In this document: positions 36,670-51,688 of the stretch, one piece after another
Position numbering within the stretch: the stretch's first letter is position 1
Layout of the letters: each line of letters opens with the position of its first letter
NCBI GenBank assembly: GCA_902799385.1
Contig: CADCAK010000012.1
Location: 1-64,000, forward strand
From: an uncultured bacterium
GTDB taxonomy: Bacteria; Verrucomicrobiota; Kiritimatiellia; RFP12; UBA1067
Direction: 5' to 3'
Length of the DNA stretch: 64,000 nt
Program-made: the position numbers and the translations under genes
Notes under the pieces: generated by a model
Database searches by the model: none
Seen by the model: only the letters and a program-made list of their open reading frames with translations
Told to the model about the DNA's origin: nothing

Positions 36670-36779
36670 CCCGCCGACCAAAGAGCGACTTGCAATGTGG
36701 GCATCCCGAAATCTGCCTGTGAGCAAAAACTTCCCTATTGTGCCATGTTGTGGAAGCAATATCGCAGCCGTCGCGACGC

Positions 36780-36838
36780 AAGGGGCGCAAAGGATAGACC
36801 TTTGCGCCCCTTGGCGATGTTGCGGGGAAAAGCCCGCA
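36780..36838 (-). terminator. Double hairpin after the first sigma/anti-sigma module
   Basis: Downstream of the stop codon on the minus strand are TGCGGG/CCCGCA (36821-36838) and a perfect 14-bp stem AAGGGGCGCAAAGG/CCTTTGCGCCCCTT (36780-36812). There is no long U tract. The same pair occurs at 47079-47136. It faces rlmN from the other side and may stop both directions. Confidence 0.6.
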
Positions 36839-36843
36839 GCGGA

Positions 36844-39800
36844 TTACTTGATGATGAATATCGTCCCGTGCGACTTGCAGAGGTAGAGAGTGCTAGTGTT
36901 GTTGCCGTTGTCAATCCACTTGGCGCGAGCGCTGGTGGCGAGAGGATAGGCCACAGTCCATGACCCGTCTTTCTGCGATGTTAGAACGGTGAGAACGGGA
37001 ATACGCTGCTCTTCCGCCGCAATCAACTGCTCACGCGTAATCTTCGAGGCGTCGATGGTGTACGCGCCGGAGGCGGAGAATGTCGTTGAAACGACCTGCG
37101 CCGTTCCCGTCGCCTTCACCGTCGCGCCGTCGGCGAGCGACAGCTTCGGAATCGCCGCGCTGCCAGGCGTGAGCTGGCCTTTCACGGTGAGAATACTGCT
37201 GCCTTTGATGTTTCCACTCTTTGCACTGTTCACGAAGTTCGCCACGGTAAGATCGGCTTCGAGGTTCAATGCGCCGCCCGATGGGATGTTCAACGTGCAG
37301 TCGTTTCCAACCGAGCCTTTGTTTTTCGGATGGAGCCATCCGTGTTCCACGTAAATCGTGCCGTCGCCGGTGATTGTCGTGTTGTCCAGCCAGAAGTTCA
37401 TGTTGGATCCGTTGAGCGTGAGTGTGTTCGAGCCAAGCGCGAGGGTCGTCGCGCCGTGACCCGGCCCGATAAGGCCGAAGTCGTTGCTGAATGCCGCTGT
37501 TGCGTTACCTTCAAGGGTGAGCGAAACAGCCTGCGCCTTATTATGATCTATGGCAGCGCCGGTGTTGGCGAATGTCGCGCCGTTTTCGAGAACAATGTTC
37601 GCGGTGACATCTTGTACTCCGTTCATATCGAACCTCGCGCCGGACACGACGCGGATGGTGTGGGTTGTGCCCGAGTCGTATCTTCTCAAAACTTTGAGCG
37701 TTCCGTTGCTGACGATTGTTGTGCCGGCAGAGCCGTTGTGAACCGGTATGGACACATCATCCGCGACGCGCTTGACGACCGTGCCGTTGTTAAGGAGACT
37801 GGTTGCGTCAACTGTGCCGTCGACATAGAGCATCGCGCCGGAATCGACCCAGGGGAAGCCCAGGCCGGTGATGGAATTGGCCTCCAGCGTACAGCCGGTG
37901 GCGACTTTCAGTATCGCGGCGCTTCCGTCCACGAACCTGATTTGACCGATGTCAACGTCCTCGTCAACCGTCAGCGTGTGGTTTTTGGAGCCGCCCGTCA
38001 CCGTGATGCGCACGACCTCGTCGCTGGCAAGCGTCGCGCCGTTGCGGAGAGTGCTCCATGTCTTGTTCGCGTCAAGCGTCCATTCGGTTTGGGTGTAGAG
38101 GATCTGCGTTCCGTCGGCGGACAGTTTCACGCGCCCTTCGCTGCTGACAACATCCGATATCGTCTTTCCGGCGGGCAGGTTGATTCCTTCCGTCGCCGTG
38201 AAGAGAACGTCGTCGATCTCGTGGGATTCGCCCGCAATGTTGATTGTCAGCTTCGCTCCGTCCTCTAACGTGAGCTCGCCCGCGATGGACACGCCGGACG
38301 GAACGGCGAGGTTCACGCCGCAACCGATGTTGAGGTCGCCGAGGCCGGACATCGTCTTTAGAGCTGCGCTGCCGTAGGCGAACGTGACGGACGCCGCGCC
38401 GTCGCCGCGCCCACAGTCGAGCGTGAGCGAATCGGCCTGCGGAGCCGCATCGAACGTCAGCGTCGGATTGTTGCCGACGACAGAAAGGACGGGATTGCCG
38501 AACTTGCCGGTGCCCATCTGCATGCTCCAGTTCAGACTGCCGTCGAACGGACGGAACGGCAGTGCGTAGAGGTTGTAGGGGGAAGTCGTTCCTGACGAAT
38601 TATATTGCGTTCCGGTGTTCCCGTAATTCGAAGATGTCACATACGAGCCGTCAGCTGGGTTGAAATAAGGCGTAGGCCAAGTGCTGCCCCACTTCAGCCC
38701 CAGCGAAGCGCCAGCGACGTCCGTGCCGCTTTCCGTGAATCCGGCGAGAACCGCATTGGCGTCTTGCTTTGTGCGAATGTCGATTTTAAGTCCGGTCGTG
38801 TTGCCCGCTCCGTCGTCCGTGACGATATGCTCCCACGAGGACATGACGCGCGCATATCCCAGATTCTGCCCGAGTCCCTTAACAGTGAAATACAAATCAC
38901 GGATGTCATTGAGCGAACATCCGGTGAAAAGCGTCGCGCTTGTCATGGGAAGATAGTCTTTCTTGTGGTAGAGCGGCATGTCCTCCCACACCTCCACAGA
39001 CGAAATGTACATCAGTCTCTCGTTGCCGCCCGCGCAGAGAAGGAATCCGTCACCCGTGAAATTGCTGCGGATGTCGGCTTCGCCGGCAAGCGACACGGAG
39101 CGATAGCCGTCGAGCGTCGAGGATGCGCCGGTCGGCCCGAAGTGCGCCGTAAAGGAGTGCCACGTATTGGCCGAAACCTGCCTGAACGCCGTCATGCCGT
39201 TATTTCCCTGCGCTCCGATGTTGCCAGTTGTATTTTTATTTTCCTCGGTGGCCGTTCCGAATATGCCCTCCTTGCCTTGGATCAGGTTCAAGTGGGATAT
39301 GAACCAGATGCCTGAGGTCGGGTCGTTGATTTTGCTGGCGACCAATGTGCGCAGTGCCCCGCGCGAGGCGGAAGGGTCGTAGAACCTAACACGCAGCATC
39401 CAGCTCTTGTCGCGGACAATGCCCGAAGGAAGCGGAATCTTGAGGTGCGCCCCTTGGGGAATCGAAAGCGCATAGTCGCCTTCAGGCAGTCCCGTATTGA
39501 CGACGGTGATCGAGCCAAGCGTCCCGTCCGTCACTTCGGTGGACGAGCCGGTTCCCGTGCAGGGTATGGCCGCGAGACTGCCGACAGTCGGCGCGAGAAT
39601 CGCCGCGCTCGTCGGATTCTCCGAGTCGTAGTTGTTGAAGTCCCATCTTGCGACGAGACCGGCCTGTGCGGTGAGGGTCGCGGTGGTGGCGAGCGCGAAA
39701 GCCGCTGCAAGGGCTTTAGTCGTTTTTCTTATGTTCATTTTATCGTTCCCTTTGTTTTGTTGTGTTGACGCGGATGGCGTATTGTTTGATGTTTCTGTTT

Positions 39801-40332
39801 TGGTTGGTTGTGTTTTGGTTGTTGAAATGGCATCGGGCATGTCCGATTGTTCCGACCGAGCGACTTCTTCGACGGACGGCTCTTGCGGCACGTAGGAGTA
39901 GCCCTCAGTGTCGGCTACCAAAGTTTCCTGCGGCGCTTCTTGTTCGGGGACGTCACTTGTCGCGGCATCTTCCTTTGCAGCTAAAATGACGCGCTCCACT
40001 ACGACGCCCGCAAGCGCCGCGCCAATGAACATAACCGCAATCGAGGCAGCCACAAGCGCCCAACGCGGAATGCGCAGGAAAAACGGCATAGGCCGACGGA
40101 CCATCACCGCACTTATAAGCCGGTCTGTAAAGTCCTCCGGCGGCGGACGCGGATGAGAATACGCCGCGTTGATGCTCATGAAGAGATCCGAATGCTCCTG
40201 CCTGCGCATAGCAAGGTAGCCACGGCATTCGGGGCAATGCTCAAGATGCCGGCAGATGATTTCCCCAAGTTCGCCATGGAGGGAATCATCAAGCGCATCT
40301 TCGATCATGCTTCTGTATTCCTGGCAGTTCAT
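36844..40332 (-). CDS. Anti-sigma factor fused to a LamG-like surface protein (module 1)
   Basis: A 1162-residue ORF. Residues 1-45 are a zinc-finger anti-sigma (zf-HC2-like) motif (RHLEHCPECRGYL, H-x3-C-x2-C). A membrane helix lies at 91-112, followed by an acidic then Thr/Ser-rich linker to about 195. At residue 199 a second Met has a Shine-Dalgarno site and a full signal peptide (MNIRKTTKALAAAFALATTA then TLTAQA). Then come a LamG/concanavalin-like region (about 225-440, GLVARWDFNN, VEVWEDMPLY) and beta-helical passenger-like repeats, ending STLYLCKSHGTIFIIK. It overlaps the sigma gene by 4 nt. As one polypeptide it would be an extracytoplasmic sensor; internal initiation would release the secreted part alone. 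Confidence 0.8.
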   Translation of the reverse strand: MNCQEYRSMIEDALDDSLHGELGEIICRHLEHCPECRGYLAMRRQEHSDLFMSINAAYSHPRPPPEDFTDRLISAVMVRRPMPFFLRIPRWALVAASIAVMFIGAALAGVVVERVILAAKEDAATSDVPEQEAPQETLVADTEGYSYVPQEPSVEEVARSEQSDMPDAISTTKTQPTKTETSNNTPSASTQQNKGNDKMNIRKTTKALAAAFALATTATLTAQAGLVARWDFNNYDSENPTSAAILAPTVGSLAAIPCTGTGSSTEVTDGTLGSITVVNTGLPEGDYALSIPQGAHLKIPLPSGIVRDKSWMLRVRFYDPSASRGALRTLVASKINDPTSGIWFISHLNLIQGKEGIFGTATEENKNTTGNIGAQGNNGMTAFRQVSANTWHSFTAHFGPTGASSTLDGYRSVSLAGEADIRSNFTGDGFLLCAGGNERLMYISSVEVWEDMPLYHKKDYLPMTSATLFTGCSLNDIRDLYFTVKGLGQNLGYARVMSSWEHIVTDDGAGNTTGLKIDIRTKQDANAVLAGFTESGTDVAGASLGLKWGSTWPTPYFNPADGSYVTSSNYGNTGTQYNSSGTTSPYNLYALPFRPFDGSLNWSMQMGTGKFGNPVLSVVGNNPTLTFDAAPQADSLTLDCGRGDGAASVTFAYGSAALKTMSGLGDLNIGCGVNLAVPSGVSIAGELTLEDGAKLTINIAGESHEIDDVLFTATEGINLPAGKTISDVVSSEGRVKLSADGTQILYTQTEWTLDANKTWSTLRNGATLASDEVVRITVTGGSKNHTLTVDEDVDIGQIRFVDGSAAILKVATGCTLEANSITGLGFPWVDSGAMLYVDGTVDATSLLNNGTVVKRVADDVSIPVHNGSAGTTIVSNGTLKVLRRYDSGTTHTIRVVSGARFDMNGVQDVTANIVLENGATFANTGAAIDHNKAQAVSLTLEGNATAAFSNDFGLIGPGHGATTLALGSNTLTLNGSNMNFWLDNTTITGDGTIYVEHGWLHPKNKGSVGNDCTLNIPSGGALNLEADLTVANFVNSAKSGNIKGSSILTVKGQLTPGSAAIPKLSLADGATVKATGTAQVVSTTFSASGAYTIDASKITREQLIAAEEQRIPVLTVLTSQKDGSWTVAYPLATSARAKWIDNGNNTSTLYLCKSHGTIFIIK
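39736..39752 (-). promoter_or_regulatory. Internal ribosome-binding site and start in module 1
   Basis: aaagggaacgataaaATG precedes the internal Met (residue 199) and its signal peptide. Module 2 has the same arrangement at 50460-50476. Initiation here would give a separate secreted protein of about 964 residues. Confidence 0.6.
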
Positions 40333-40880
40333 GACTGTTCCTCCTCTTTGTCAAAAGCCCTTCCCAATGACTTCCTAAGGCGGCGCCGCGCCAGATGCAG
40401 CCGGGATTTCACGGTTCCCGTCGGCACTTTCATCAGCTGCGCCATCTCCTGAAGCGTCTTGTCCTCAAAGTAGCGAAGCATCACGACCTCGCGCAACGCA
40501 GGCGAAAGACGCGACACGGCCAAGCGCACGACTTCGGCATCCATCTCCGTGAGACGCTTCGTCGTCACCGCTTCATCGGCGATTGCCGCTGCGTTTTCGC
40601 AGCAATCTGCCTCTTCGCCGACTTCGGCCTTCATCTTGCGCAGGTCGCCTCTGAAGTAGTTCAGCAGAATTGCATAGAGCCAGCTCCAGAATGGCTGCCC
40701 GTCGTCATACTGGTCAATCTTGGCAATTACCTGCGAAAAAGTGCGAAATACGAGGTCTTCTGCGGTATGCTCGTCTTTGCAAAGAACGAGCGAAGCGCCA
40801 AAAAGCCTGTCCCAGAACTCTGCGACAAGCCTCTTGGCTCCTTTTTCCTTATCTGACCTAATCTCCGCCCAGACTTCCAT
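40329..40880 (-). CDS. ECF-type RNA polymerase sigma factor (module 1)
   Basis: 183 residues with sigma-70 region 2 (about 20-85, AEDLVFRTFSQVIAKI) and region 4 (about 120-175, LSPALREVVMLRYFEDKTLQ and GTVKSRLHLARRRLRK), the ECF minimum. Its stop overlaps the start of the anti-sigma fusion by 4 nt, as for co-expressed sigma/anti-sigma pairs. ATG at 40880, 6 nt after TATAAT; promoter elements recognised by this sigma are not evident. Confidence 0.9.
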   Translation of the reverse strand: MEVWAEIRSDKEKGAKRLVAEFWDRLFGASLVLCKDEHTAEDLVFRTFSQVIAKIDQYDDGQPFWSWLYAILLNYFRGDLRKMKAEVGEEADCCENAAAIADEAVTTKRLTEMDAEVVRLAVSRLSPALREVVMLRYFEDKTLQEMAQLMKVPTGTVKSRLHLARRRLRKSLGRAFDKEEEQS

Positions 40881-40886
40881 ACTACC

Positions 40887-40892
40887 ATTATA
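40887..40892 (-). promoter_or_regulatory. -10 box of sigma factor module 1
   Basis: TATAAT on the minus strand, 6 nt before the ATG; near-leaderless. Confidence 0.55.
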
Positions 40893-40966
40893 GTATATGG
40901 AGCGAGCGGCGAAAAGGTTCTATGGATTTATCAATTACAACAACAAAGTGCAAGAATTCTGCGGAC

Positions 40967-40991
40967 AGGCCCTCTGGAACGCTGAAAAATC
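40967..40991. repeat. Direct repeat flanking the first AAA ATPase gene (left copy)
   Basis: aggccctctggaacgctgaa and on to aaatc, 25 bp. The matching copy at 42443-42467 differs at two positions. Confidence 0.75.
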
Positions 40992-41041
40992 AAGGGTTTT
41001 GCGTAGTCTGTCCCCGACGTCCCAACTTCACGCCGCCCCCT

Positions 41042-41122
41042 TCGTCAGGAAAAATGTCGCGCCACCGTTGAAACTCGTCAGAAAAAATGCTACAATGCTC
41101 ACTGAACTCGTCGGAGAAAGTG
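41042..41122. repeat. Three 15-bp repeats at exact 33-bp spacing before the first ATPase
   Basis: tcgtcaggaaaaatg (41042), tcgtcagaaaaaatg (41075) and tcgtcggagaaagtg (41108). The third includes the GGAG Shine-Dalgarno of the ATPase gene. The spacing is about three helical turns, so they could be binding sites for a regulator, or remains of an 11-codon protein repeat. Confidence 0.6.
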
Positions 41123-41126
41123 TCAA

Positions 41127-42419
41127 ATGGAACGAATTGCATACAGTTCTCTTCTTGAATGGAAAAACTCGCCCAAGCGCAAGCCGCTTATCCTTCGCGG
41201 CGCACGTCAGGTCGGCAAGACCTGGCTTCTCAAGGAATTCGGGCGTCGGGAATACGCATCGTTGGTCTATGTGAACTGCGACAAGGAGTCGTTTGCCGCC
41301 GATCTTTTCCGGGACTACGACATCAAGCGTATTCTCCTTGCAATCGAAGCGAACACTGGCGTGCAGGTTCGCGAAGGAGAAACGCTTGTGATCTTCGACG
41401 AAATTCAGGAAGTCCCGCGCGGCATAGGGGCGCTCAAGTATTTTTGCGAGGATGCGCCCGGCGTACACGTGGCGGCGGCAGGGTCACTTCTCGGAATAAC
41501 GCTCCACGAAGGGACATCCTTTCCCGTCGGCAAAGTAGATGAAATCACGCTCCGTCCGCTTTCCTTCGCCGAGTTTCTTTCCGGGACTGGCGATGCTCCA
41601 CTTGCAGAACTTCTCGCCTCCGGCATTGAAGCGGCCATAGACACGATGCGCGAAGCCTACATCGAACGCCTCCGGCGCTACTTCTTCACCGGCGGCATGC
41701 CCGAGGCCGTTGCCGCGTTCGCCGAAGGACGGTCTCTGGCGGAAGTCCGCCGCATCCAAGATGAAATCGTGCTCGCCTACCAAAACGACATCTCCAAGCA
41801 CGCTCCAGCCCGCGAAGTGCCGCGTATCAATCTCGTGTGGCGCTCGCTGGTCGTGCAACTCGCGAAGGAGAACAAGAAGTTCATCTACGGGGCAATTAAG
41901 CACGGCGGACGCGCCAGAGAGTTCGAGACGGCCATACAATGGCTCGTGGACGCTGGAACCGTCAACCGTGTGAACCGCACGAACAAGCCCGCGCTACCGC
42001 TCAAGTTCTACGAAGACTTCGACGCCTTCAAACTCTACCCACTCGACTGCGGTCTCATGGGCGCGATGGCACAGGCCCCAGTCTCGGCAATCATTGCGGG
42101 AAATGGTTTTTTCGAGGAATACAAGGGAGCGTTCACCGAAGCGTATGTCCTCGCCGAAATGCTCTCGGCAAATTCCTCGCAGGTGTTCTACTTCAGTTCC
42201 GCCAACTCAACCGTTGAAATAGATTTTCTCGTCCAAAAGGGAACCAAAGTCGTTCCCGTGGAGGTAAAGTCCGCCGAAAACCTCCAGTCCAAATCGCTCA
42301 GGACGTTCGTGACGAGAAACGAAGGGCTGAAGGGAGTGCGATTCTCCCTCGCGCCCCACAAAGACCAAGTGTGGATGCGCAACATACCGCTTTACGCAGT
42401 CAGCACATTCTTCTGCTAA
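41127..42419 (+). CDS. AAA-family ATPase with C-terminal DUF4143 (copy 1)
   Basis: 430 residues. The N-terminal AAA_14-type P-loop domain has LILRGARQVGKTWLLKEFG (about 20-38), Walker B TLVIFDEIQEVP and sensor-like VAAAGSLLG. Then comes a DUF4143 domain of PD-(D/E)xK-like pattern (YFSSANSTVEIDFLVQKG, VVPVEVKSAEN). These orphan ATPases are common in gut and rumen bacteria and often lie in variable loci; their biochemical role is not established. It is flanked by a 25-bp direct repeat and sits against a decayed GH2 gene, suggesting insertion. Confidence 0.85.
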   Translation: MERIAYSSLLEWKNSPKRKPLILRGARQVGKTWLLKEFGRREYASLVYVNCDKESFAADLFRDYDIKRILLAIEANTGVQVREGETLVIFDEIQEVPRGIGALKYFCEDAPGVHVAAAGSLLGITLHEGTSFPVGKVDEITLRPLSFAEFLSGTGDAPLAELLASGIEAAIDTMREAYIERLRRYFFTGGMPEAVAAFAEGRSLAEVRRIQDEIVLAYQNDISKHAPAREVPRINLVWRSLVVQLAKENKKFIYGAIKHGGRAREFETAIQWLVDAGTVNRVNRTNKPALPLKFYEDFDAFKLYPLDCGLMGAMAQAPVSAIIAGNGFFEEYKGAFTEAYVLAEMLSANSSQVFYFSSANSTVEIDFLVQKGTKVVPVEVKSAENLQSKSLRTFVTRNEGLKGVRFSLAPHKDQVWMRNIPLYAVSTFFC

Positions 42420-42442
42420 GCCGTATAGGAGAATTTGGAGAA

Positions 42443-42467
42443 AGGCCCTCTGGAACGCTAATAAATC
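42443..42467. repeat. Direct repeat flanking the first AAA ATPase gene (right copy)
   Basis: aggccctctggaacgctaat and on to aaatc. It overlaps the last codons and stop of the decayed GH2 gene on the minus strand. Confidence 0.75.
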
Positions 42468-43395
42468 GAGACCCTGACGCCTGGCACGATGGGAGTGAAC
42501 TCAAACGTCCCCGCCGACGGAGCGTACTTGCCCTGCCGCACGGTCGCGGCGCGGACCTTGATCGGCTTCGGATTCGCCGACGCCCTCGGACGGATCAGCA
42601 CCACCGCCTCGCCCCAGCGCGTCACCTGCGGGTTCGTACCCACGATGTCCGCGTCGCCTTCGACCGTGAAGCGGATAGTCTCCGTCTCGTAGCGCTTGGG
42701 ATTGTTATCGCCGTCCGAGAGCGTCGCCGTGAAGTTCTCTATCTCCCTCACGTTCCCACGCCTCTGCTTCCTGTATGCGGCGGCCTTCGCGTGCGCCTTG
42801 CGGTATCCGTACTTCGTCTCGCCGGGCTTGAACGGCTCGCCGAGGAGCGTCGCATTGTAGGTACAGTTCGAGAACACCGTCACCGTATCCGGCGAACAGT
42901 TGGCCAACTCGTGCGCAACATAGACGAACGGCTTTTCGTTGAGGGCAGCCTTGAAGGCGTACCACGAGTACTTCTTCTGCCGCGCATACGTCATGATGCC
43001 GCCGTAGAAGTTGTCGGGATGGCCCCCGCGCGAATGGTCGCATCCGTGCCAGAGGCACGCGCCGAAGTGGTGCGGCGGATCGTGCAGCAGCTCGTCGAGT
43101 ATCCACATGTAGTGGTCGGCCTGCACGACCATCGGCCACTCGCCCCACTCCCACGGGATGCGCGACGGAGAGTTCTGCGCCGACCAGTCATCGACGAAGT
43201 CACCCCATTCGCGGCGGAACGACACCTTCGCACCGACGCCATGGTCGCTGTAGTTGACCCAGCATGCAGGATGCCCGTGACCTCGGCATGGATTGGCAGG
43301 AACCCGCCGAAGTGTTCGGCAATCTGCTTGCCGTTCAGCGTCACGCGGCTCTTGACTTTTAGCATCTGTACTTGCTTATTGTACCCCATTTCCAT
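42458..43395 (-). pseudogene. Glycoside hydrolase (GH2-like) remnant, internally deleted and frameshifted
   Basis: The 5' piece (about 43395-43262) encodes the end of a sugar-binding jelly roll (VTLNGKQIAEHFGGFLPIHA, EVTGILHA). The frame then changes near 43260 and continues as the C-terminal part of a catalytic barrel (CWVNYSDHGVGAKVSFRREW, WEWGEWPMVVQADHYMWILD, ACLWHGCDHSRGG) and a closing beta domain to the stop at 42458. The immunoglobulin-like domain and most of the TIM barrel are missing between the two, and no N-terminus or signal peptide remains. This is decay by internal deletion. The GH2 assignment is from the jelly-roll pattern. Confidence 0.75.
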
Positions 43396-43458
43396 CAGCC
43401 ACCCCGCAAGCGGGCCGCGAGAACCGAGTTTTTGGGAATTGTCATTTCGAGTTTAGAC

Positions 43459-43517
43459 AAAATCGCCGATACAGTTGGCGATTTTACTGCAAATTCGCCG
43501 ACAGAGTTGGCGATTTG
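43459..43517. promoter_or_regulatory. Pair of inverted repeats upstream of the second AAA ATPase
   Basis: AAAATCGCC-N9-GGCGATTTT (43459-43485, perfect arms) and AAATTCGCC-N9-GGCGATTTG (43491-43517, two mismatches). Their starts are 32 bp apart and they sit directly before the -35 box. Likely tandem operator sites; a weak terminator is the alternative. Confidence 0.6.
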
Positions 43518-43520
43518 TCA

Positions 43521-43550
43521 TTGACTTGCTGTCTCTCAAAATGATAGAAT
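43521..43550 (+). promoter_or_regulatory. Promoter of the second AAA ATPase
   Basis: TTGACT (43521-43526), 18-nt spacer, TAGAAT (43545-43550). Confidence 0.65.
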
Positions 43551-43583
43551 ACATGCGTTTGAATGACAAAAAAGGGAAATCAG

Positions 43584-44720
43584 ATGTATATCTCGCGAAA
43601 ACTTGATGTTTCCAAAGTGCTTGAACACAAGTCCTGCTTTCTTTTCGGCCCCCGCCAGTGCGGGAAGTCGTCTCTCATACGCAAAACGATTCCCGACGCA
43701 TACATCTTTGACCTGCTCAACTCCGATACATTCGCCCACCTTGCCCGCAATGCCAATTATATCGAGGAGGTCTGCCGCGAGAACCACCCGATAGTCATCG
43801 ACGAGATTCAAAAGATGCCCACATTGCTCGACGAGGTACACCGCCTTATCGAATTGCGCGGATTCAAATTCCTTCTCACTGGCTCCAGCGCAAGAAAGCT
43901 CCGCAGGGGCGGCGTTAACCTTCTTGGCGGCAGGGCGAGAATAAGGAACATACATCCCTTTTCCGCGTCGGAACTTGGCGAGAGATTCGACCTTGACCGC
44001 GCCATAAACTATGGACTTCTTCCGGGGATATGGTTTTCGGACGATCCCGAAGACGACCTCGCCGGATATGTGACGCTCTATCTTGAGCAGGAAATCATGC
44101 AGGAAGGTGCGACAAGGAATCTCCCGGCATTCAGCCGCTTCCTCGAAATCGCGGCTCTCTCCAATGGCGACCAGATCAACTACCAGTCCATCTCCTCTGA
44201 CGCGCAGATTCCCAGAAGCACCGTGCAGGAGTATTTCAAGATACTCAAAGACACCCTCATTGCGCGCGAAGTTCCCGTATGGCGCAAGGGACAGTCCAGA
44301 AAGACCGTCGAAACCGCCAAGTTCTATCTCTTCGACACTGGCGTCGCCAGACGACTCCAACGGCGCAAAGAACTTGTTCGCGGCACTCCCGAATACGGCC
44401 AAGCGTTCGAGAGCTGGATTCTCCACGAACTTAGCGCATACGCCGACGCCTGCCGACACGACGTCGAAATCTCCTATTGGCGTACACGCACCAAGCTCGA
44501 AGTCGCCTTTGTCATCAACGGCGAAATAGCTATCGAGGTCAAGACGACGCGAAGCGCGGACAAGGAGGATTTCAAGGGCCTTCGCGCAATAGCCGATGAA
44601 GGTCGATTCTCCCAGCGTCTGCTTGTGTGCGACGAGCCGACGGAAAGGGAGACGGACGGAATTGTCGTTCTCCCTTGGCGAAAGTTTATCGATTATCTCT
44701 GGTCTGGCCGAATCTTCTGA
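43584..44720 (+). CDS. AAA-family ATPase with C-terminal DUF4143 (copy 2)
   Basis: 378 residues. P-loop FGPRQCGKSSLIRKT (about 24-38), Walker B PIVIDEIQKMPTLLDEV and LTGSSARKLRRGG, then a winged-helix-like stretch and a DUF4143 nuclease-like end (SYWRTRTKLEVAFVINGEIA, IEVKTT). The start at 43584 (MYISRKLDV) is preferred over an ATG at 43563 because AAAGGGAAA stands 6-7 nt before it. Only distantly similar to copy 1, so not a recent duplication. Twin inverted repeats and a clear promoter lie upstream. Role unknown. Confidence 0.83.
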   Translation: MYISRKLDVSKVLEHKSCFLFGPRQCGKSSLIRKTIPDAYIFDLLNSDTFAHLARNANYIEEVCRENHPIVIDEIQKMPTLLDEVHRLIELRGFKFLLTGSSARKLRRGGVNLLGGRARIRNIHPFSASELGERFDLDRAINYGLLPGIWFSDDPEDDLAGYVTLYLEQEIMQEGATRNLPAFSRFLEIAALSNGDQINYQSISSDAQIPRSTVQEYFKILKDTLIAREVPVWRKGQSRKTVETAKFYLFDTGVARRLQRRKELVRGTPEYGQAFESWILHELSAYADACRHDVEISYWRTRTKLEVAFVINGEIAIEVKTTRSADKEDFKGLRAIADEGRFSQRLLVCDEPTERETDGIVVLPWRKFIDYLWSGRIF

Positions 44721-44725
44721 TTTCA

Positions 44726-44757
44726 GACAGGACTGACAGGATTTACAAGATTGTCAG
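44726..44757. repeat. acaggattt-type repeat after the second ATPase
   Basis: gacaggactgacaggattta then caagattgtcag. Intergenic; the same family as the element at 62419-62483 in gltB. Confidence 0.7.
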
Positions 44758-44765
44758 CTCCCGCT

Positions 44766-46571
44766 CTACCTGCTAAATTTGTACGGCTTCATGCCATTCT
44801 TGGACTGCTTCAGGTTCAGGAGCGTCTGTAGTTCTGCCGTCTTCGCAGGGTCCTCGTGGATGCCACGCGGCAGGCAACCGTACTTCTTGCAGAGCGAGGC
44901 AGCGTAGCCAGCAGCGATACCCTGCTGTGCACCCGCATGCATCACACGGCTCGACCCGAACGCAACGTGCGTGTAGCTGGCGCAGCGTCCTGATAGAAAA
45001 AGGTTCGGGACATCACGGCAGCAGAGCGAGCGGTACGGCATCCACCATGGCGCGACCCTTGTGTGAGTCGTCTCGGCAAGAAAGCCCGAATCGCCTTTCG
45101 CCCAGTGCAAGTCGATCGTCCATGTCGCGATGCCGATGGCATCCTCGAACTTCCGGCACTCGATGACATCCTTCTCGCTGACCACATAGTCGCCGATGAT
45201 GCGGCGGCTCTCGCGCTTGCCGGCGATATACGGCACCCAATTGAAGACGAGCTTGGAGTTTTCGCTTTTCTGCTTCGCATTCCAGAAGCTGCCGTAGATG
45301 GCGCGGAAGAGCCGGTCGCGCAGCATCTCGGCGTCGTCGATGGTGTCTTCCGCAGGGTCAAGCCCCGCCTCCCATTGCCAGGTGCCTTTGGTTGCGGAGA
45401 GCGTTCCGCTGACCTTGGTCGCCCACGGCACTTCGGGGAAGACGTAGTCGTCGGCTTGCTTTTTCGTGGTCCACAGGAGCGAATTGCCCATTGTGCTTGT
45501 GTCGGCGACGTCCGGCGCCCGCTTTGGCTCGTCGTATTCACCCTTCGCCTCGCGCCCGAGCATGTACTTGGCTCCCGCCCAGTAGCCGATCCAGCCGTCG
45601 CCCGTCGCGTCGCAGAAGAGCGGCGCGAGGAAGCGACGCCGCGCGCCCGTCTCAATGTTCCGCGCATCGACCGCAACGATCTTGCGCTCCGCGTTTGTCA
45701 CGACCCCATACGCGCGCCAGCCCGTATTGAGGTTGATGTTCGCATAGCTACGCACGAAATTCATGCGCCTTTCATCGTCTGCGGCCATCGAATTGCCGTT
45801 CGCTGGCCCGTTCTTTATAGCATTTACGATCCAGTGGTATTCGCTTTTCTTCTTCTCGGTCTTGACGCGAATCTCGTCGCTCGCGTTGCCGCCGAGCATC
45901 GGGCGATCATGGATGAGCGCGACGTTCATACCCGCCTCCGCAGCCGCAACCGCCGCCGCAGTGCCGGCCATTCCGCCGCCGACCACCACGAAATCAGCCT
46001 TGACGACATCATCCGGCGCACCCGCCTCGCCGCGCATCTCCGCACGCCAAGCCGCGAGCGCGGTAGCGTCGTTAGGCGGCATGGACGCGCCTTCGGGGCA
46101 GAGATAGATAGCGTCGCAGCGTCCCTCGAAGCCGGTGAGATCGTGGAGTGCAAGTGTCTGCTGCCCTTTGCCCACCTCGACCACGCCTGCGTCAATCCAT
46201 CCCCATGTCGCAGGGGCAACGCCGAGCGTCACGGGGAAAGTCTTGCCGCCGAGAATAAGTTGGAAGCGTCCAGGCTTCTCGCCGTTCCAGTCGGGCGTCC
46301 AGTCGCGCGTCCTGACGTAAGCGCGGACGCGACCGGGCGCGATATTGACAGACGTTGTCGCGTCAGCGACCGGAACGCCCTTGCCGTGCGCGAGCAGGTA
46401 AGGTGAGCCCATCTGCTCCACGAACTGAGGATCAACGACCCACCCGCCCTTTTCGGCAAACGCCTCGGCCTCGACAAGGCACGATCCTAGAACGGGTAAT
46501 GCCTCGCCCGCCGAATACGCCGAGAACATCCGGCAGTATGCCAATATGCAAACAGTCAATAATTTCTTCAT
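44766..46571 (-). CDS. Secreted FAD-dependent oxidoreductase with N-terminal beta domain
   Basis: 601 residues. Signal peptide (MKKLLTVCILAYCRMFSAYS), a ~150-residue beta-rich carbohydrate-binding-like domain (LVEAEAFAEKGGWVVDPQF), then a FAD-dependent oxidoreductase of the PF12831 type with VVVGGGMAGTAAAVAAAEAG, LGGNASDEIRV, CDATGDGWIGYWAGA and C-terminal LFLSGRCASYTHVAFGSSR. Families like this are often found with carbohydrate-active enzymes; the substrate is not known. The ATG at 46571 has a strong AAAGGAGG site. It follows a truncated vapC. Confidence 0.82.
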   Translation of the reverse strand: MKKLLTVCILAYCRMFSAYSAGEALPVLGSCLVEAEAFAEKGGWVVDPQFVEQMGSPYLLAHGKGVPVADATTSVNIAPGRVRAYVRTRDWTPDWNGEKPGRFQLILGGKTFPVTLGVAPATWGWIDAGVVEVGKGQQTLALHDLTGFEGRCDAIYLCPEGASMPPNDATALAAWRAEMRGEAGAPDDVVKADFVVVGGGMAGTAAAVAAAEAGMNVALIHDRPMLGGNASDEIRVKTEKKKSEYHWIVNAIKNGPANGNSMAADDERRMNFVRSYANINLNTGWRAYGVVTNAERKIVAVDARNIETGARRRFLAPLFCDATGDGWIGYWAGAKYMLGREAKGEYDEPKRAPDVADTSTMGNSLLWTTKKQADDYVFPEVPWATKVSGTLSATKGTWQWEAGLDPAEDTIDDAEMLRDRLFRAIYGSFWNAKQKSENSKLVFNWVPYIAGKRESRRIIGDYVVSEKDVIECRKFEDAIGIATWTIDLHWAKGDSGFLAETTHTRVAPWWMPYRSLCCRDVPNLFLSGRCASYTHVAFGSSRVMHAGAQQGIAAGYAASLCKKYGCLPRGIHEDPAKTAELQTLLNLKQSKNGMKPYKFSR

Positions 46572-46575
46572 TACG

Positions 46576-46746
46576 CTACCTCCTTTTCGGGATGAGTGAG
46601 CAAATGCGGGAGCGTGACGATATGGGCATGCCATATTCACACGCTTCCGCATTCTTCGACTGAAGCGCTTGCGACGACTGTTTTGAGAAAGCCGGATCAG
46701 CCTTCAATATGTCAATCAGGACACAGGTATCGACAACCCAGGTCAT
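46576..46746 (-). pseudogene. Truncated VapC-type PIN toxin
   Basis: The first ~30 codons (MTWVVDTCVLIDILKADPAF) are a PIN-domain start with the first active-site Asp. The remaining ~26 codons do not match the family and end at 46576, against the FAD oxidoreductase gene. Full VapC proteins have about 130 residues with three more acidic residues, so this is inactive. The ATG overlaps the antitoxin stop by 4 nt. Confidence 0.7.
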
Positions 46747-46994
46747 GTCATCTCTCCTTCGCGCATTTCTGCCATGTATTCGGCGGTCGTCGTCGGCTTG
46801 TCATCGAATCGCAGACCATATCCTATGAAGTCGCTGACGTTCGGCTTGACGCGACTGGACCGCTCGGAGCGAATGCGGGCCGCCTCCTTCTCCACTAGCT
46901 CAAAGACAAATTGGGCGAAGGAGATGCCGCGCGCATTTGCGCAGTATCTTACGTCTTGCTCTACGACAGGCGGAAGATCTAATGCTATGCTCAT
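46743..46994 (-). CDS. VapB/RelB-type antitoxin, toxin partner lost
   Basis: 83 residues. The N-terminal ribbon-helix-helix-like segment (MSIALDLPPVVEQDVRYCAN and ISFAQFVFELVEKEAAR) is followed by a flexible toxin-binding tail (FDDKPTTTAEYMAEMREGEM). A strong AAGGAGGG site precedes the ATG, with a TATAAT promoter at 47023. The toxin gene immediately downstream is truncated, so this is an orphan antitoxin. Confidence 0.75.
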   Translation of the reverse strand: MSIALDLPPVVEQDVRYCANARGISFAQFVFELVEKEAARIRSERSSRVKPNVSDFIGYGLRFDDKPTTTAEYMAEMREGEMT

Positions 46995-47022
46995 GTGGCC
47001 CTCCTTTTAGTTTATGACACCT

Positions 47023-47031
47023 ATTATACCA
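47023..47031 (-). promoter_or_regulatory. Extended -10 promoter of the antitoxin gene
   Basis: TGGTATAAT on the minus strand. Unlike most promoters here it gives a leader of about 28 nt with a Shine-Dalgarno site. Confidence 0.6.
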
Positions 47032-47078
47032 TATTCTTGTGCCATGTTGTGGAAGCAATATCGCAGCCGTCGCGACGC

Positions 47079-47136
47079 AAGGGGCGCGAAGGATAGACCT
47101 TTGCGCCCCTTGGTGATGTTGCGGGAAGAACCCGCA
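47079..47136 (-). terminator. Double hairpin after the second sigma/anti-sigma module
   Basis: Same two stems as at 36780-36838: TGCGGG/CCCGCA (47120-47136) and AAGGGGCGCGAAGG/CCTTTGCGCCCCTT with one wobble (47079-47111). The whole flank from 47037 to about 47200 is nearly identical to 36738-36900. Confidence 0.6.
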
Positions 47137-47141
47137 GCGGA

Positions 47142-50100
47142 TTACTTGATGATGAATATCGTCCCGTGCGACCTGCAGAGGTAGAGGGTGCTGGTGTCGT
47201 CGCCGTTGTCAACCCACTTGGCGCGAACGCAGGTGACAGGAGGATTGGCCACAATCCAGTCACCACCCCTGTTCGCGGTCGGAACGGTCAAGACAGGAAT
47301 ACGCTGCTCTACCGCCGCGCTCAACTGCTCCTTGGTAATCTCCGAGGCGTCGATGGTGACAGTGCCGGGTACGGAGAATCCGTACGAGATCCTTTGCGTG
47401 GTGGTGGCGGACGCATTGACCGTTGAACCGTCGGCGAGCGTCACCCGCTTGATTTCGTTGCCGGGGGTGAGCGTGCCAGTTACAGTGAGCCAACCAGTAC
47501 CGCCGCCGGTGGCGTTTCCGCGATTCGTGAAGTTCTTGACCGTAAGCGTCTTGTCGTTTGCGAGCGTGAGCTTACCGCTTGCCCCGATAATGAGTGTGCA
47601 GTCTTCACCAGCGGAGTCTTGCTGGGTCACAGAGAGCGTGCCGGAGTTCACTGCAATCGTGCCATCTCCATAGATGGTCGTATTGTCGAGCCAGAAATTG
47701 CTGGAGCCATTGAGCGTCAAGGTATACGAGCCGAGATCAAGCCTCGTCGCACGATGGGCTGGCGCCAGGAGGCCAAATTGCTTGGTGGCCGTCACTGTCG
47801 CATTACCGGTTAGAATAATCTGGACGGTCTGCATCTGGTTGTCGGGGATATCTGCGCGTGAATTGACAAAGTACGCGCCATCCGCGAGCCGGACGGATGC
47901 CGTTAGGTCATTAATGCCGTTCAAATCAAACGTAGCACCCTCTACCACGTCGATGAGCTGGTTCGCATGCGGGTTCTCGTCCGAGACAAACGCATAGGGA
48001 CTACCAGCGACCGTTTTGACGCCCGCCACCTTCAACGTTCCGTTGCTGATGATGGTAACGCCCGTAGAGCCATTGTCGAACGGCCAGGTTGCCGTGCCGT
48101 CGCCCATCTTTACGATGGTGCCGTTGTTGAGAATATTGCCAATGCCAGCGACATCTTCCACCATCAGCGTCTTGCCCGATGCGACGCTCAACGTCGAGCC
48201 GGAAGCGTTTATGAACTCGATGCTCTTGGCGGTGGCGTCCACGTCAACAGTTAGCGTGTAGTCATATGTCGCCTCTATGAGCACAGCATCGTCCGAAGAC
48301 AGAGAATCATAGCCGCTGAAATCGCTCCAGTTCTTGTCTGAGTCGAGCACCCAAACCGTCGCGTCCCCTTCCATCCAACGAATATCGCAGACGCCGTAGT
48401 CTATTGCAGTGCGCGAGGTTGCGACAGTCTTTAATTCACCTTGCCACGTTTTGTCCTGCTTCAGAAATTCATAGCCCAGCGACGCATTTGGATTATATCG
48501 TGCGCCTAAAGCCTTGGCGTAAACATCGTTGCCATCGTCCGTGAACTCCACTACGACGCACCTGATTCTGGTTGTTCCACTTTCAAGGTATTGGAACTCT
48601 ACGACGATGCTTTGCAAGTCATCATTATCATCGTAGTAAAGCTTCGTGTTGTAACCGTCGACAGCGTGAAGCACGTTGTATTCGGCGGCCACGTACTTGC
48701 CGAACATTCGGGTGGTGAATTTGGCGTACTTGATTTTCTGAAGAGTCGTGTCCGGGAAGACCAAGACTGGAGTATCGGTTCCCACTCCGCTTACGGCGAC
48801 GAGAGAAGCGACTATCTTCGTCGGATTCCCGGCGTCGTCCAATGCGCGGGTCGAGCCGGACGCACAGTTTACAAGGGAGACTTTTTCGAGGTCGGCGGCG
48901 GTCAGTCCGCTCGCCACAAGCACGTCGTAATCCTTGTCCTCAATGGTAGACCTGCCATCAACGACAAAACCGTTGTCGAGGATGGCTTTCGATGCGACAA
49001 CCCTTGTGCCGAGTTCGACAACCGTGCCGCAATTCACAATGCCTTCAATATTGATGGTCTTGCCACCCTTGAACGTCATTGCACCAGTATTACCGGGCTG
49101 CCCCAGAGCGGCGGCAACAAAGACGCGGCTGCCGGACGTCGCATCGCTCAAATTGCCGCTGTCAATCATGCCGCCGTTTTCGCCGACATTAACCGTCACG
49201 CCGTCGGCGATAAGTCCGTACAGTTGCACGGCGCTGTTCGCCTTGAGCGTTCCGCCGTTAAAGTTAAGTGTGCGAGAGGAACCGTTGTTTGTCAGTAGCC
49301 GGCGCGTGACGAGCGTTCCACCGTTGAGATTTATCGTGCCGCTGGCGCCCTCGTTCCATGCAAAGTACGCGTCTTTGCTTGTCACCGTCACGGTGCCGTC
49401 GTTGACCGTCAGCGTTCCCATGCCCTTGTCGCCGACAACAAGTGCGCTGCCTGAATTGCCATTGTAATTGAGCGTAAGTGTTCCACCATCGATCTCCACG
49501 GCGGCGGTCTTGCCAGACGCATATCCAATTCGCATAATGCCGCCTACCGTGACAGCCCCGCTCTTTATGACGAGAGTACCATCGTAGATGTTGAGATCAC
49601 CGGTGGCGGCGAGCTTGCCCTCGCCTTCCTTGACGACCTTTACGTTGCCGGAGAACGTGATTGACGAAGGCCATGCCACCGAGCCGCTGGCCACGTTCAA
49701 ATGCAGTTCGCCAGGCGGTGCGCTGAAGTATTCCAGCTGCACAAGTTCGAAATAATTGTTGCTACCAACTCTTTCCGTGACCTTCAGGCGGTAGTAGCGA
49801 TATGCCGTGGAGTTACCACAGAAATAGGTGCGGTCTTCTGGCGTAATATTGCTGCTGCCTTGCGTCCAAGACGTCTCACCGCTATGACTGTCGATCACGA
49901 CCCAGTCAACATCCGACGAGGCTCCATAGGCCGAGTCGTTGTTCGACCCGTACAGCGTCCATGCCTTCGGTGCACGTTCTCTCCAAGCAGCCCAGATTTT
50001 GTAAGTGTTCATCGCCTTGGCGTTACCGTCGCCAAAATCGTAGTCAACCCTGAAAGACAGTTTTTGATTGTTATTCCCGAGATTTTGATTGTTATTCCCG

Positions 50101-51044
50101 AGATTGAGTAATACACGATGGCTCGTACTGTATGAGTTCTGGCCTTTGTTGTCGAACAAGGCTGCAACTGCTCCGCTTTGGGTAGCAGACGGCGACGGCA
50201 TTGTGCACGTTCCATCCGGATCGGTGAGATCTGCACCTGTGGCCAGGCTTGTAATGGTGCCGGAACCGTCGAGCGACGTGCAGGTCAGCTTGTAGCCGTT
50301 GAGGTCGAGCGTGACACCGCTTTCGACGGTCAGTGCGCCAACCGACATGTCTTCGGTGAGCGTAAAGTTTTCGCTCACCGTCCAGTCATCAGTCGCCTGT
50401 GCGCTGCCAGTTGCGAACGTGAAAGCCGCTGCAAGGGCAGATATGGTTTTTCTTATGCTCATTTTATCGTTCTCCCCGTTTTCTTGTGTTGATGCGGATG
50501 GCGTATTGTTTGATGTTTCTGTTTTAGTTGTTGAAATGGCTTCGGCAATGCCCGTTTGTGCCGATTCGGAGACTTCTTCGAGAACCGCATCCTGCGGCGC
50601 ATAGGAGTCGTCCGTCCCTGCGTCGGCAACCAAAGTTTCCTGCGGCGCTTCGCTTTCGGGGACGTCACTGGTCGCTGCTTCTTCCTTTGCAGATGAAATG
50701 ACGTGCTCCACGACGACACCCGCAAACACTGCGCCCATAAACATTATCGCAATCGAGGCCGCTACAAGCGCCCAACGCGGCATGCGCAGGAAGAACGGCA
50801 GAGGACGAGGGGCCATCACTGCCGCGACGAGTCGATCCGCAAAATCGGACGGAAGACTATGGGAATGCCCACAGTCGCAGTTCACAGCCCTGTACCAGCG
50901 CACGAACTCCGTCCGCTCTGCCTCAAAGAAATCTCGGCATTCCTTGCAGTGCTGAAGATGCAGGTCGAGCCGACGCTTGACCCTGCCCGACAGACTTCTG
51001 TCAAGCGCGTCTTCAACAAAGGATCTGGCTTCCTGGCAATTCAC
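47142..51044 (-). CDS. Anti-sigma factor fused to an F5/8-type-C-like surface protein (module 2)
   Basis: A 1300-residue ORF with the same plan as module 1. Zinc-finger anti-sigma motif LHLQHCKECRDFF, membrane helix at 91-112 (WALVAASIAIMFMGAVFAGV), acidic and Thr/Ser linker (TETSNNTPSAST, shared with module 1), internal Met 195 with Shine-Dalgarno and signal peptide (MSIRKTISALAAAFTFATGS). The exported part has a discoidin-like region (about 300-450, RVLLNLGNNNQ, YRYYRLKVTERVGS) and long beta-helical repeats (LNLNGGTL-like), ending STLYLCRSHGTIFIIK. It overlaps its sigma gene by 4 nt. Sensor or nested secreted protein, as in module 1. Confidence 0.8.
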   Translation of the reverse strand: MNCQEARSFVEDALDRSLSGRVKRRLDLHLQHCKECRDFFEAERTEFVRWYRAVNCDCGHSHSLPSDFADRLVAAVMAPRPLPFFLRMPRWALVAASIAIMFMGAVFAGVVVEHVISSAKEEAATSDVPESEAPQETLVADAGTDDSYAPQDAVLEEVSESAQTGIAEAISTTKTETSNNTPSASTQENGENDKMSIRKTISALAAAFTFATGSAQATDDWTVSENFTLTEDMSVGALTVESGVTLDLNGYKLTCTSLDGSGTITSLATGADLTDPDGTCTMPSPSATQSGAVAALFDNKGQNSYSTSHRVLLNLGNNNQNLGNNNQKLSFRVDYDFGDGNAKAMNTYKIWAAWRERAPKAWTLYGSNNDSAYGASSDVDWVVIDSHSGETSWTQGSSNITPEDRTYFCGNSTAYRYYRLKVTERVGSNNYFELVQLEYFSAPPGELHLNVASGSVAWPSSITFSGNVKVVKEGEGKLAATGDLNIYDGTLVIKSGAVTVGGIMRIGYASGKTAAVEIDGGTLTLNYNGNSGSALVVGDKGMGTLTVNDGTVTVTSKDAYFAWNEGASGTINLNGGTLVTRRLLTNNGSSRTLNFNGGTLKANSAVQLYGLIADGVTVNVGENGGMIDSGNLSDATSGSRVFVAAALGQPGNTGAMTFKGGKTINIEGIVNCGTVVELGTRVVASKAILDNGFVVDGRSTIEDKDYDVLVASGLTAADLEKVSLVNCASGSTRALDDAGNPTKIVASLVAVSGVGTDTPVLVFPDTTLQKIKYAKFTTRMFGKYVAAEYNVLHAVDGYNTKLYYDDNDDLQSIVVEFQYLESGTTRIRCVVVEFTDDGNDVYAKALGARYNPNASLGYEFLKQDKTWQGELKTVATSRTAIDYGVCDIRWMEGDATVWVLDSDKNWSDFSGYDSLSSDDAVLIEATYDYTLTVDVDATAKSIEFINASGSTLSVASGKTLMVEDVAGIGNILNNGTIVKMGDGTATWPFDNGSTGVTIISNGTLKVAGVKTVAGSPYAFVSDENPHANQLIDVVEGATFDLNGINDLTASVRLADGAYFVNSRADIPDNQMQTVQIILTGNATVTATKQFGLLAPAHRATRLDLGSYTLTLNGSSNFWLDNTTIYGDGTIAVNSGTLSVTQQDSAGEDCTLIIGASGKLTLANDKTLTVKNFTNRGNATGGGTGWLTVTGTLTPGNEIKRVTLADGSTVNASATTTQRISYGFSVPGTVTIDASEITKEQLSAAVEQRIPVLTVPTANRGGDWIVANPPVTCVRAKWVDNGDDTSTLYLCRSHGTIFIIK
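50062..50103. repeat. 21-bp in-frame tandem duplication in module 2
   Basis: Two perfect copies of a 21-bp unit containing gattgttattcccgaga give a 7-residue protein repeat (LGNNNQN LGNNNQK). The frame is kept. It marks recent slippage in the sensor-like domain. Confidence 0.85.
50460..50476 (-). promoter_or_regulatory. Internal ribosome-binding site and start in module 2
   Basis: ggggagaacgataaaATG stands before Met 195 and its signal peptide, nearly the same sequence as in module 1 (gggaacgataaaATG). Confidence 0.65.
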
Positions 51045-51607
51045 TTATAATCTCCAGTTAAATTAGACGAGGTTTCAGGGCGAATCGTTCGGGCGATTTT
51101 GTCGCGCATGTACTTCTTGGCATCGTGGAGCCGCCGTTTGACCGTCCCTTCCGGCAGTGAAAGCACCTTCGCAATCTCGGGAACTGACATGTCTTCGTAG
51201 AACCTAAACACCACGACGCTCCGCAAGTGGGCTGGCAAAGTCCTTATCGCGGCGCGGACTACGGTGGACTCGTCCTTTGCACCAAGCGCGGCACCTGCAT
51301 CCGGGGCGGGATCCTCGCGCTCCGGCAGACTTTCGGGGAAAACGAGTGCATTTGCGCCCTTCCGCCGAGCGTCCGTCCGGATGATATTCGCCATTATTTC
51401 ATACATCCACGTGAAAATGGAGGATTTACCCTTGAACTGGGAGATTCGCTCTACTACTTTCTCAAGAGTGCGGAAAACGTAGTCTTCTGCGTCAGATTCG
51501 CTGCCACAAAGGCATATAGCCGTCTCGTAAAGACGACTTCCGTACTCTGCGACAAGGCGGCGAGTCCCCGCTACCTTGTCCGAGGCGATTTCATCCTGTA
51601 GCAACAT
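51041..51607 (-). CDS. ECF-type RNA polymerase sigma factor (module 2)
   Basis: 188 residues, region 2 (AEDYVFRTLEKVVERI, FTWMYEIMANIIR) and region 4 (LPAHLRSVVVFRFYEDMSVP, GTVKRRLHDAKKYMRDK). Only moderately similar to the module 1 sigma, whereas the anti-sigma membrane segments are very alike. 4-nt overlap with the anti-sigma fusion. The preceding promoter is not obvious. Confidence 0.9.
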   Translation of the reverse strand: MLLQDEIASDKVAGTRRLVAEYGSRLYETAICLCGSESDAEDYVFRTLEKVVERISQFKGKSSIFTWMYEIMANIIRTDARRKGANALVFPESLPEREDPAPDAGAALGAKDESTVVRAAIRTLPAHLRSVVVFRFYEDMSVPEIAKVLSLPEGTVKRRLHDAKKYMRDKIARTIRPETSSNLTGDYK

Positions 51608-51688
51608 CTTTGTAAATTAGACGATGGCACAGGTGAAATCGTTCACAAAAAGACGAAAATAATTCCTCAGTCCATTAATGCAGTATCG

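What the first reader, a model, noticed from the sequence alone, without database searches (positions are those of the whole stretch)
36844..51607. Two ECF-sigma modules whose anti-sigma factor is fused to a giant carbohydrate-binding-like surface protein
Seen: in both modules a sigma gene overlaps by 4 nt an ORF of 1162 or 1300 codons that begins with a zinc-finger anti-sigma motif and one membrane helix and continues in frame into a LamG-like or discoidin-like domain and beta-helical repeats. Known: RsgI-type anti-sigma factors of clostridia carry extracellular carbohydrate-binding domains that sense polysaccharides. Inference: these are an independently built, much larger version, a passenger-sized sensor wired directly to a sigma factor, possibly reporting on glycans or on surface-protein export. 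Two paralogues keeping the frame argue against chance.
Basis: partly seen in the sequence, partly recalled or inferred. Interest (0 to 1): 0.85.

Follow-up and report, generated by a model that had tools for sequence, protein, structure and literature searches.

The report
Sigma-factor regulator with nested surface-protein gene
Two neighbouring genes each join a membrane anti-sigma factor, without a stop codon, to a complete secreted surface-protein gene that keeps its own ribosome site, start codon and signal peptide; the same layout recurs in dozens of related loci, so one open frame probably gives both a membrane-tethered regulator and the free surface protein it controls.

Summary
Both modules are an ECF sigma gene overlapping by 4 nt one ORF (1162 or 1300 codons): zf-HC2 anti-sigma, one TM helix, linker, carbohydrate-binding-like passenger. 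Homologues of both passengers exist as stand-alone secreted proteins whose N-terminal signal peptide aligns to this internal one, so a whole secretory gene sits in frame behind the anti-sigma domain. I found 42 such loci in 14 genomes of or near the genus, and 19 in two other families of the order; in many the sigma factor itself heads the ORF. Linkers hold about 3000 codons without an in-frame stop. Internal SDs are far stronger than at other in-frame Mets (-7.8 vs -2.3 kcal/mol). A near-orthologue of module 1 and several sigma fusions lack the internal start, so the long fusion must work alone there. Each sigma has an ECF-like promoter seen only once in its own genome. Best reading: a self-activating cassette whose single ORF makes a tethered regulator-sensor and a free surface protein. 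Dual translation and proteolytic release are inferred, not shown. New variant of a known kind.

The parts
40895..40920 (-). ECF-type promoter-like site of module 1, GAACCTTTT-N11-CCATAT
   Evidence: GAAC-N16-GCAT class common upstream of these sigma genes; only exact copy in own genome; conserved in L100
40329..40880 (-). ECF sigma factor, module 1 (183 aa)
36844..40332 (-). fused ORF of module 1: zf-HC2 anti-sigma, TM, linker, nested secretory gene (1162 aa)
40222..40326 (-). zf-HC2 anti-sigma domain, residues 3-37 (HLEHCPEC)
40000..40056 (-). transmembrane helix, residues 93-111
39739..39999 (-). acidic stop-free linker, residues 112-198
39747..39753 (-). internal Shine-Dalgarno-like AAAGGGA
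   Evidence: dG -5.3
39661..39738 (-). internal start ATG plus signal peptide MNIRKTTKALAAAFALATTATLTAQA (residues 199-224)
   Evidence: aligned to N-terminus of stand-alone homologue L283
36874..39660 (-). surface passenger (LamG/ConA-like N-terminal part, then repeats)
36847..36873 (-). C-terminal tail SHGTIFIIK
51617..51645 (-). ECF-type promoter-like site of module 2, TGAAC-N16-TCGTC
51041..51607 (-). ECF sigma factor, module 2 (188 aa)
51059..51091 (-). second copy of the module 2 promoter-like element (25/33 identical), 14 nt before the anti-sigma start codon
47142..51044 (-). fused ORF of module 2 (1300 aa)
50934..51038 (-). zf-HC2 anti-sigma domain, residues 3-37 (HLQHCKEC)
50712..50768 (-). 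transmembrane helix, residues 93-111
50463..50711 (-). stop-free linker, residues 112-194
50472..50477 (-). internal Shine-Dalgarno GGGGAG
   Evidence: dG -8.1
50394..50462 (-). internal start ATG plus signal peptide MSIRKTISALAAAFTFATGSAQA (residues 195-217)
   Evidence: aligned to N-termini of L287, L288, L289
47172..50393 (-). surface passenger with CBM32 / F5-8C-like domain
47145..47171 (-). C-terminal tail SHGTIFIIK

Best explanation
Each module is a self-contained, self-activating ECF cassette whose second ORF has two translation products. The long product starts at the anti-sigma start codon: the zf-HC2 domain holds the sigma factor at the membrane, and the TM helix exports the linker and passenger. 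The short product starts at the internal SD/ATG, is exported by its own signal peptide, and is the free surface protein (carbohydrate-binding-like). The tethered copy of the passenger senses a surface condition: a glycan ligand, or the state or abundance of the surface protein itself. Proteolysis of the linker and TM (RseP-like) then releases sigma, which fires its own promoter and makes more of both products. Shown by sequence: the architecture, internal start and signal peptide, frame conservation, promoter motif, and stand-alone homologues. Inferred: that both products are made, the sensing, and the proteolytic release.
For: Internal start: mean SD energy is -7.8 kcal/mol at 34 internal sites against -2.25 at 243 other in-frame Mets, and -6.3 at stand-alone secreted genes. 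The signal-peptide test is positive at 29/34 internal sites and 0/213 other Mets. One member has GTG where its relative has ATG, with the SD kept (L229/L231). Stand-alone homologues, including one in the window's own genome (L289), align from their N-terminal signal peptide onwards to the internal one. Long product: 0 in-frame stops in 1955 linker codons against 47 and 83 in the other two frames, and none in 1053 codons from two other families. Linker pN/pS is 0.54. L100 and several sigma fusions have no internal start or signal peptide. Topology: TM dG -0.7 against +4.9 for the internal signal peptide, which is too polar to act as a second TM, so the passenger would still be exported in the long form. 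Self-regulation: GAAC-N16-GCAT sites upstream of the sigma genes in 13/73 loci against a shuffle maximum of 5; each window promoter occurs once in the held genome; module 2 has a second copy before the anti-sigma start. A RseP-like protease family (PF02163) is present.
Against: No expression data. Synonymous shuffling of the codons before the internal Met does not by itself prove selection on the SD (observed -7.8, shuffled -6.1, combined p 0.11), because the encoded E/K/G residues already give purines. Module 1's own SD is moderate (-5.3). A few relatives have weak SDs and one (L085) has lost the internal start codon. The ligand and the protease steps are untested, and the genome is 77.5% complete, so other promoter copies may be missing.
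Confidence: 0.6

Rival explanations
1. Pure fusion sensor: only the full-length anti-sigma/surface protein is made, an RsgI-like glycan sensor; the internal Met and signal peptide are relics of the fusion event.
For: Clean fusions without internal start in L100, L068, L216, L218, L219, L221, L223, L230 and the squalene-cyclase-like family; L085 lost the start codon; CBM32-like fold.
Against: SD, start codon and signal peptide are kept in dozens of divergent loci and three families of the order; relics should decay, and a GTG substitute keeps initiation possible.
Confidence: 0.2
2. Operon of separate proteins: the internal start makes the surface protein, and the missing stop codon is neutral, so the read-through product has no function.
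For: Passengers are complete secretory genes with stand-alone homologues; linkers are weakly constrained.
Against: No in-frame stops in about 3000 linker codons from many divergent cassettes, while the other frames have them; several relatives have no internal start, so there the passenger can only be made as a fusion.
Confidence: 0.13
3. Variant of the best explanation: the tethered copy reports on export rather than on glycans. The long form carries the same passenger and tail as its target protein, so blocked or mislocalised passenger triggers sigma release.
For: Same kind of C-terminal tail on fused and stand-alone surface proteins; passengers differ widely between related heads, which argues against one fixed ligand.
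Against: No direct evidence; CBM32-like and ConA-like domains suit glycan binding equally well.
Confidence: 0.25
4. Assembly artefact or recent one-off gene fusion.
For: Only one held assembly contains these exact modules; the linkers of modules 1 and 2 were recently homogenised.
Against: Independent assemblies and divergent loci repeat the architecture.
Confidence: 0.02

Closest known systems
RsgI anti-sigma factors with SigI (Clostridium thermocellum; PMC12203970)
   Same: Membrane anti-sigma factor for an alternative sigma, one TM helix, extracytoplasmic carbohydrate-binding sensor, several paralogues with different sensor domains.
   Different: Partner here is an ECF sigma and the anti-sigma domain is zf-HC2, not the RsgI N-terminal domain; here the sensor part is a complete secretory gene with its own start site and signal peptide and with stand-alone homologues; no self-cleaving periplasmic domain was identified.
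ECF52 / ECF53 sigma factors of Actinobacteria (e.g. SCO4117; PMC5826349, PMC8999054)
   Same: Sigma, zinc finger, TM and carbohydrate-binding domain in one chain; proposed proteolytic release; positive autoregulation suggested for SCO4117.
   Different: Actinobacterial; extensions of up to about 400 residues; no nested start or signal peptide described. In the window the sigma is a separate gene, although relatives in the order do fuse it.
IutY-type fused sigma/anti-sigma (ECF243; PMC8999054)
   Same: Sigma tethered by its own C-terminal membrane extension; regulated proteolysis by Prc and RseP.
   Different: Responds to an iron carrier as part of a cell-surface signalling system; no surface-protein passenger.
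Two-polypeptide phage endolysins from single genes (PMC9430671)
   Same: One ORF with an internal in-frame start giving a long and a short product that share the stop codon.
   Different: Phage lysis enzymes, no sigma regulation and no added export signal on the short product.

Membership tests
Class I (ZAS, zf-HC2) ECF anti-sigma factor | zf-HC2 domain with H-x3-C-x2-C motif | tested here: met
   module 2 above the Pfam cutoff; module 1 below it (17.6 against 22.2 bits) but motif intact (HLEHCPEC)
Class I (ZAS, zf-HC2) ECF anti-sigma factor | encoded directly next to an ECF sigma | tested here: met
   4-nt overlap with an ECF sigma gene in both modules (co-transcription is inferred)
Class I (ZAS, zf-HC2) ECF anti-sigma factor | binds and inhibits the cognate sigma | not testable with these tools
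   needs a binding or reporter assay
RsgI | RsgI N-terminal anti-sigma domain with SigI partner | tested here: not met
   zf-HC2 domain and ECF sigma partners; no RsgI or SigI model matched
RsgI | TM helix followed by an extracytoplasmic carbohydrate-binding domain | tested here: met
   TM; CBM32-like fold in module 2; module 1 only at low confidence; binding itself untested
RsgI | self-cleaving periplasmic domain | tested here: inconclusive
   no such domain matched in Pfam, but no dedicated search was made
ECF52 / ECF53 | sigma, zinc finger, TM and carbohydrate-binding domain in one polypeptide | tested here: not met
   in the window the sigma is a separate gene; relatives such as L060-L074 do fuse sigma and TM, without an identified zinc finger
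Nested in-frame gene (internal start) | SD and start codon in frame, sharing the stop codon with the longer ORF | tested here: met
Nested in-frame gene (internal start) | both polypeptides are made | not testable with these tools
   needs N-terminal proteomics or start-site ribosome profiling
Classical autotransporter (type Va) | C-terminal outer-membrane beta-barrel domain | tested here: not met
   no autotransporter barrel model matched; the ORFs end in SHGTIFIIK

The most novel reading that the evidence does not exclude
An order-wide class of self-referential regulators: one ORF encodes both a sigma (or anti-sigma) factor tethered to a copy of a surface protein and, from a nested start site, that surface protein itself, so that the cell senses exactly the protein it is making. 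Passengers are swapped in frame between cassettes, giving many private, self-activating surface-protein switches per genome.
Probability: 0.4. Interest if true: 0.88.

Novelty: new variant of a known kind. Interest (0 to 1): 0.74.

Why it matters
If both products are made, this is a compact way to couple a surface protein to its own regulator: sensor and effector are the same sequence read from two start codons. It is common (up to 19 related sigma hits in one genome of the order) in uncultured, mostly gut-derived Kiritimatiellae-like bacteria whose gene regulation is almost unstudied, and gene callers will file it as one hypothetical protein or one sigma factor. It also suggests how these bacteria could keep many alternative surface proteins under separate, self-reinforcing control.

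Tried and rejected
(1) C-terminal tail as a sigma-system-specific degron for Prc/PDZ proteases: dropped as the main idea after the same kind of tail was found on stand-alone secreted proteins (L180, L186, L189, L198, L199), although very short members keep it too (L087, L096, L079). (2) Proof of SD selection by synonymous shuffling: not significant (combined p 0.11), so the argument rests on comparison with other Mets and on recurrence. (3) The two window modules as independent evidence for frame keeping: weakened, because their linkers were recently homogenised. (4) Internal signal peptide as a second TM helix putting the passenger in the cytoplasm: unlikely (dG about +4.9). (5) A wider regulon for either sigma: promoter pattern searches found no further convincing copies. 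(6) Literature: no paper on sigma factors in Kiritimatiellota in the held library; the main ECF re-classification paper is not held, so absence of a described group could not be fully checked. (7) A genome-contig scan with the anti-sigma query found nothing; the sigma alignment worked.
Full report
OBSERVATION. On the minus strand, the sigma genes 40329-40880 and 51041-51607 each overlap by 4 nt an ORF of 1162 or 1300 codons (36844-40332 and 47142-51044). Both sigmas are ECF (TIGR02937, 79 and 82 bits). zf-HC2 covers residues 3-37 in both ORFs (4.8e-5 in module 2; 0.0043, below the curated cutoff, in module 1). One strong TM helix follows (residues 93-111 in both).

After an acidic linker (87 and 83 residues) both ORFs contain an in-frame ribosome site and start codon...acaaaGGGaacgataaaATG (39738) and ...acGGGGAGaacgataaaATG (50462). 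Each is followed by a typical signal peptide (MNIRKTTKALAAAFALATTATLTAQA; MSIRKTISALAAAFTFATGSAQA). Homologues of the module 1 passenger (G026, L283: 62% over 549 aa) and of the module 2 passenger (L287, L288 and, in the window's own genome, L289) are stand-alone secreted proteins. Their N-terminal signal peptide aligns to the internal one. So each fused ORF contains a whole secretory gene, from its own start codon to its stop.

RELATED LOCI. A sigma profile (A2) found relatives in 37 of 61 genomes of the genus. I read about 80 of these loci plus three from a genome collection. Forty-two loci in 14 genomes have the full layout of head, TM, linker, SD, start, signal peptide and surface passenger; most of those with an intact 3' end finish in a short hydrophobic tail of the type G-x-hydrophobic-I-I-R/K. 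In many the head is the sigma factor itself, with no separate anti-sigma (L060-L074, L078, L224-L231). Other loci are clean fusions without an internal start: L100 (CAMPAA010000089.1; sigma 70% identical to module 1), L068, L216, L218, L219, L221, L223, L230, and a conserved sigma-TM-squalene-cyclase-like protein (L075, L077, L086). Ordinary short anti-sigma factors also occur (L076, L088, L090-L092, L094, L095). I found no locus with a stop between a TM linker and a tail-bearing surface protein. In the order, 68 of 145 genomes match; families f4 and f6 carry many sigmas in ORFs of 750-1560 codons. Twenty of these were fetched for their long open frames; one (L308) ends too soon, and the other 19 all show the same layout, 15 by the signal-peptide test and four (L310, L314, L317, L318) by eye.

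STATISTICS. SD energy at 34 internal starts averages -7.8 kcal/mol, against -2.25 at 243 other in-frame Mets (Mann-Whitney p about 1e-18). Against synonymous shuffles (-6.1) it is not significant on its own. Stand-alone secreted genes average -6.3. A simple signal-peptide test is positive at 29/34 internal sites and 0/213 other Mets. The linkers of these 34 sites total 1955 codons with no in-frame stop, against 47 and 83 stops in the other two frames; the other families add 1053 codons with none, against 6 and 14. These loci were chosen for their open frame and are partly related, so the counts are descriptive; the stronger point is that the genus search was by sigma, did not require fusion, and yielded no split version. 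Linker pN/pS pooled is 0.54, head 0.39, passenger 0.47: the linker behaves as translated and weakly constrained. L229 has GTG at the internal start where its relative L231 has ATG, with the SD kept; L085 has lost the start (GTT).

EVOLUTION. Heads and passengers are exchanged. L064 and L071 have heads 52% identical but linkers 99% identical. L100 carries a different passenger behind a module-1-like head. In the window the linkers of the two modules are much closer (dS 0.25) than the heads (dS 0.99), and the last 415 residues of the passengers are 53% identical. In-frame recombination around the linker would explain this.

REGULATION. Upstream of the sigma genes a GAAC-N16-GCAT-type element is over-represented (13 of 73 non-redundant upstream regions for the best pair, shuffle maximum 5). 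Module 1 has GAACCTTTTCGCCGCTCGCTCCATAT, nearly identical in L100. Module 2 has TGAACGATTTCACCTGTGCCATCGTC. Each occurs once in the held genome (77.5% complete), with only background-level partial matches. Module 2 has a second copy (25/33 identical, best non-self match in the window) 14 nt before the anti-sigma start codon. The likely main target of each sigma is its own cassette.

MECHANISM. Shown by sequence: architecture, nested start, export signals, frame conservation, promoter motif. Inferred: (a) the long form tethers and inhibits sigma, with the passenger outside. The internal signal peptide is too polar to act as a second TM (predicted dG +4.9 against -0.7 for the TM helix), so it would be carried across. 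(b) The short form is the secreted surface protein. (c) A signal acting on the tethered passenger leads to linker and TM cleavage; a RseP-family protease is encoded, and RseP is the known intramembrane protease for RsgI (PMC12203970) and IutY (PMC8999054). (d) Released sigma activates the cassette. The signal could be a glycan (module 2 has a CBM32-like fold; module 1 is ConA-like with low confidence) or the export or abundance of the surface protein itself.

KNOWN RELATIVES. It works like RsgI and like ECF52/53 sigma factors, but is not a member of RsgI (different anti-sigma domain and sigma class) nor of ECF52 (separate sigma in the window, different phylum). Nested in-frame start sites are known, for example in phage endolysins (PMC9430671). 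I know of no description of a secretory gene nested in a sigma or anti-sigma ORF; the held library gave none, but the main ECF classification paper could not be read.

TAXON.

Noticed in passing
L060-L074, L078, L224-L231, L300-L319: Sigma factors that are themselves the N-terminus of 750-1560-codon ORFs running through a TM helix into surface proteins; up to 19 related sigma hits in one genome (G048).
   Followed up: partly
L075, L077, L086 and other genomes of the genus with open frames of about 590-613 codons: A conserved sigma-TM-terpenoid-cyclase-like (squalene-cyclase-type, by eye) fusion of about 600 aa with no internal signal peptide, probably an orthologous regulator of the genus.
   Followed up: no
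L180:443-2461, L186:1285-5124, L189:1056-2081, L198:10930-13977, L199:978-1838: A short C-terminal tail (G-x-hydrophobic-I-I-R/K type) shared by many secreted surface proteins, fused or not; possibly an unrecognised sorting signal.
   Followed up: partly
L080, L084, L087, L098, L102: Small members of the family (about 230-330 aa) are followed by a secreted protein that looks, by eye, like a formylglycine-generating (SUMF1-type) protein.
   Followed up: no
window 36000-52000: G+C falls from about 0.64 to 0.55-0.59 across both modules and the genes between them (including two ATPase-like ORFs at 41127-42419 and 43563-44720), suggesting an acquired or fast-evolving island.
   Followed up: no
L235 and L085: An SGNH-hydrolase-like secreted gene (by eye) is in frame with the sigma gene in L235 but separated by a stop and lying between sigma and anti-sigma in L085.
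   Followed up: no
L223: A sigma-TM fusion to a domain that resembles a CBM9-like carbohydrate-binding domain by eye.
   Followed up: no
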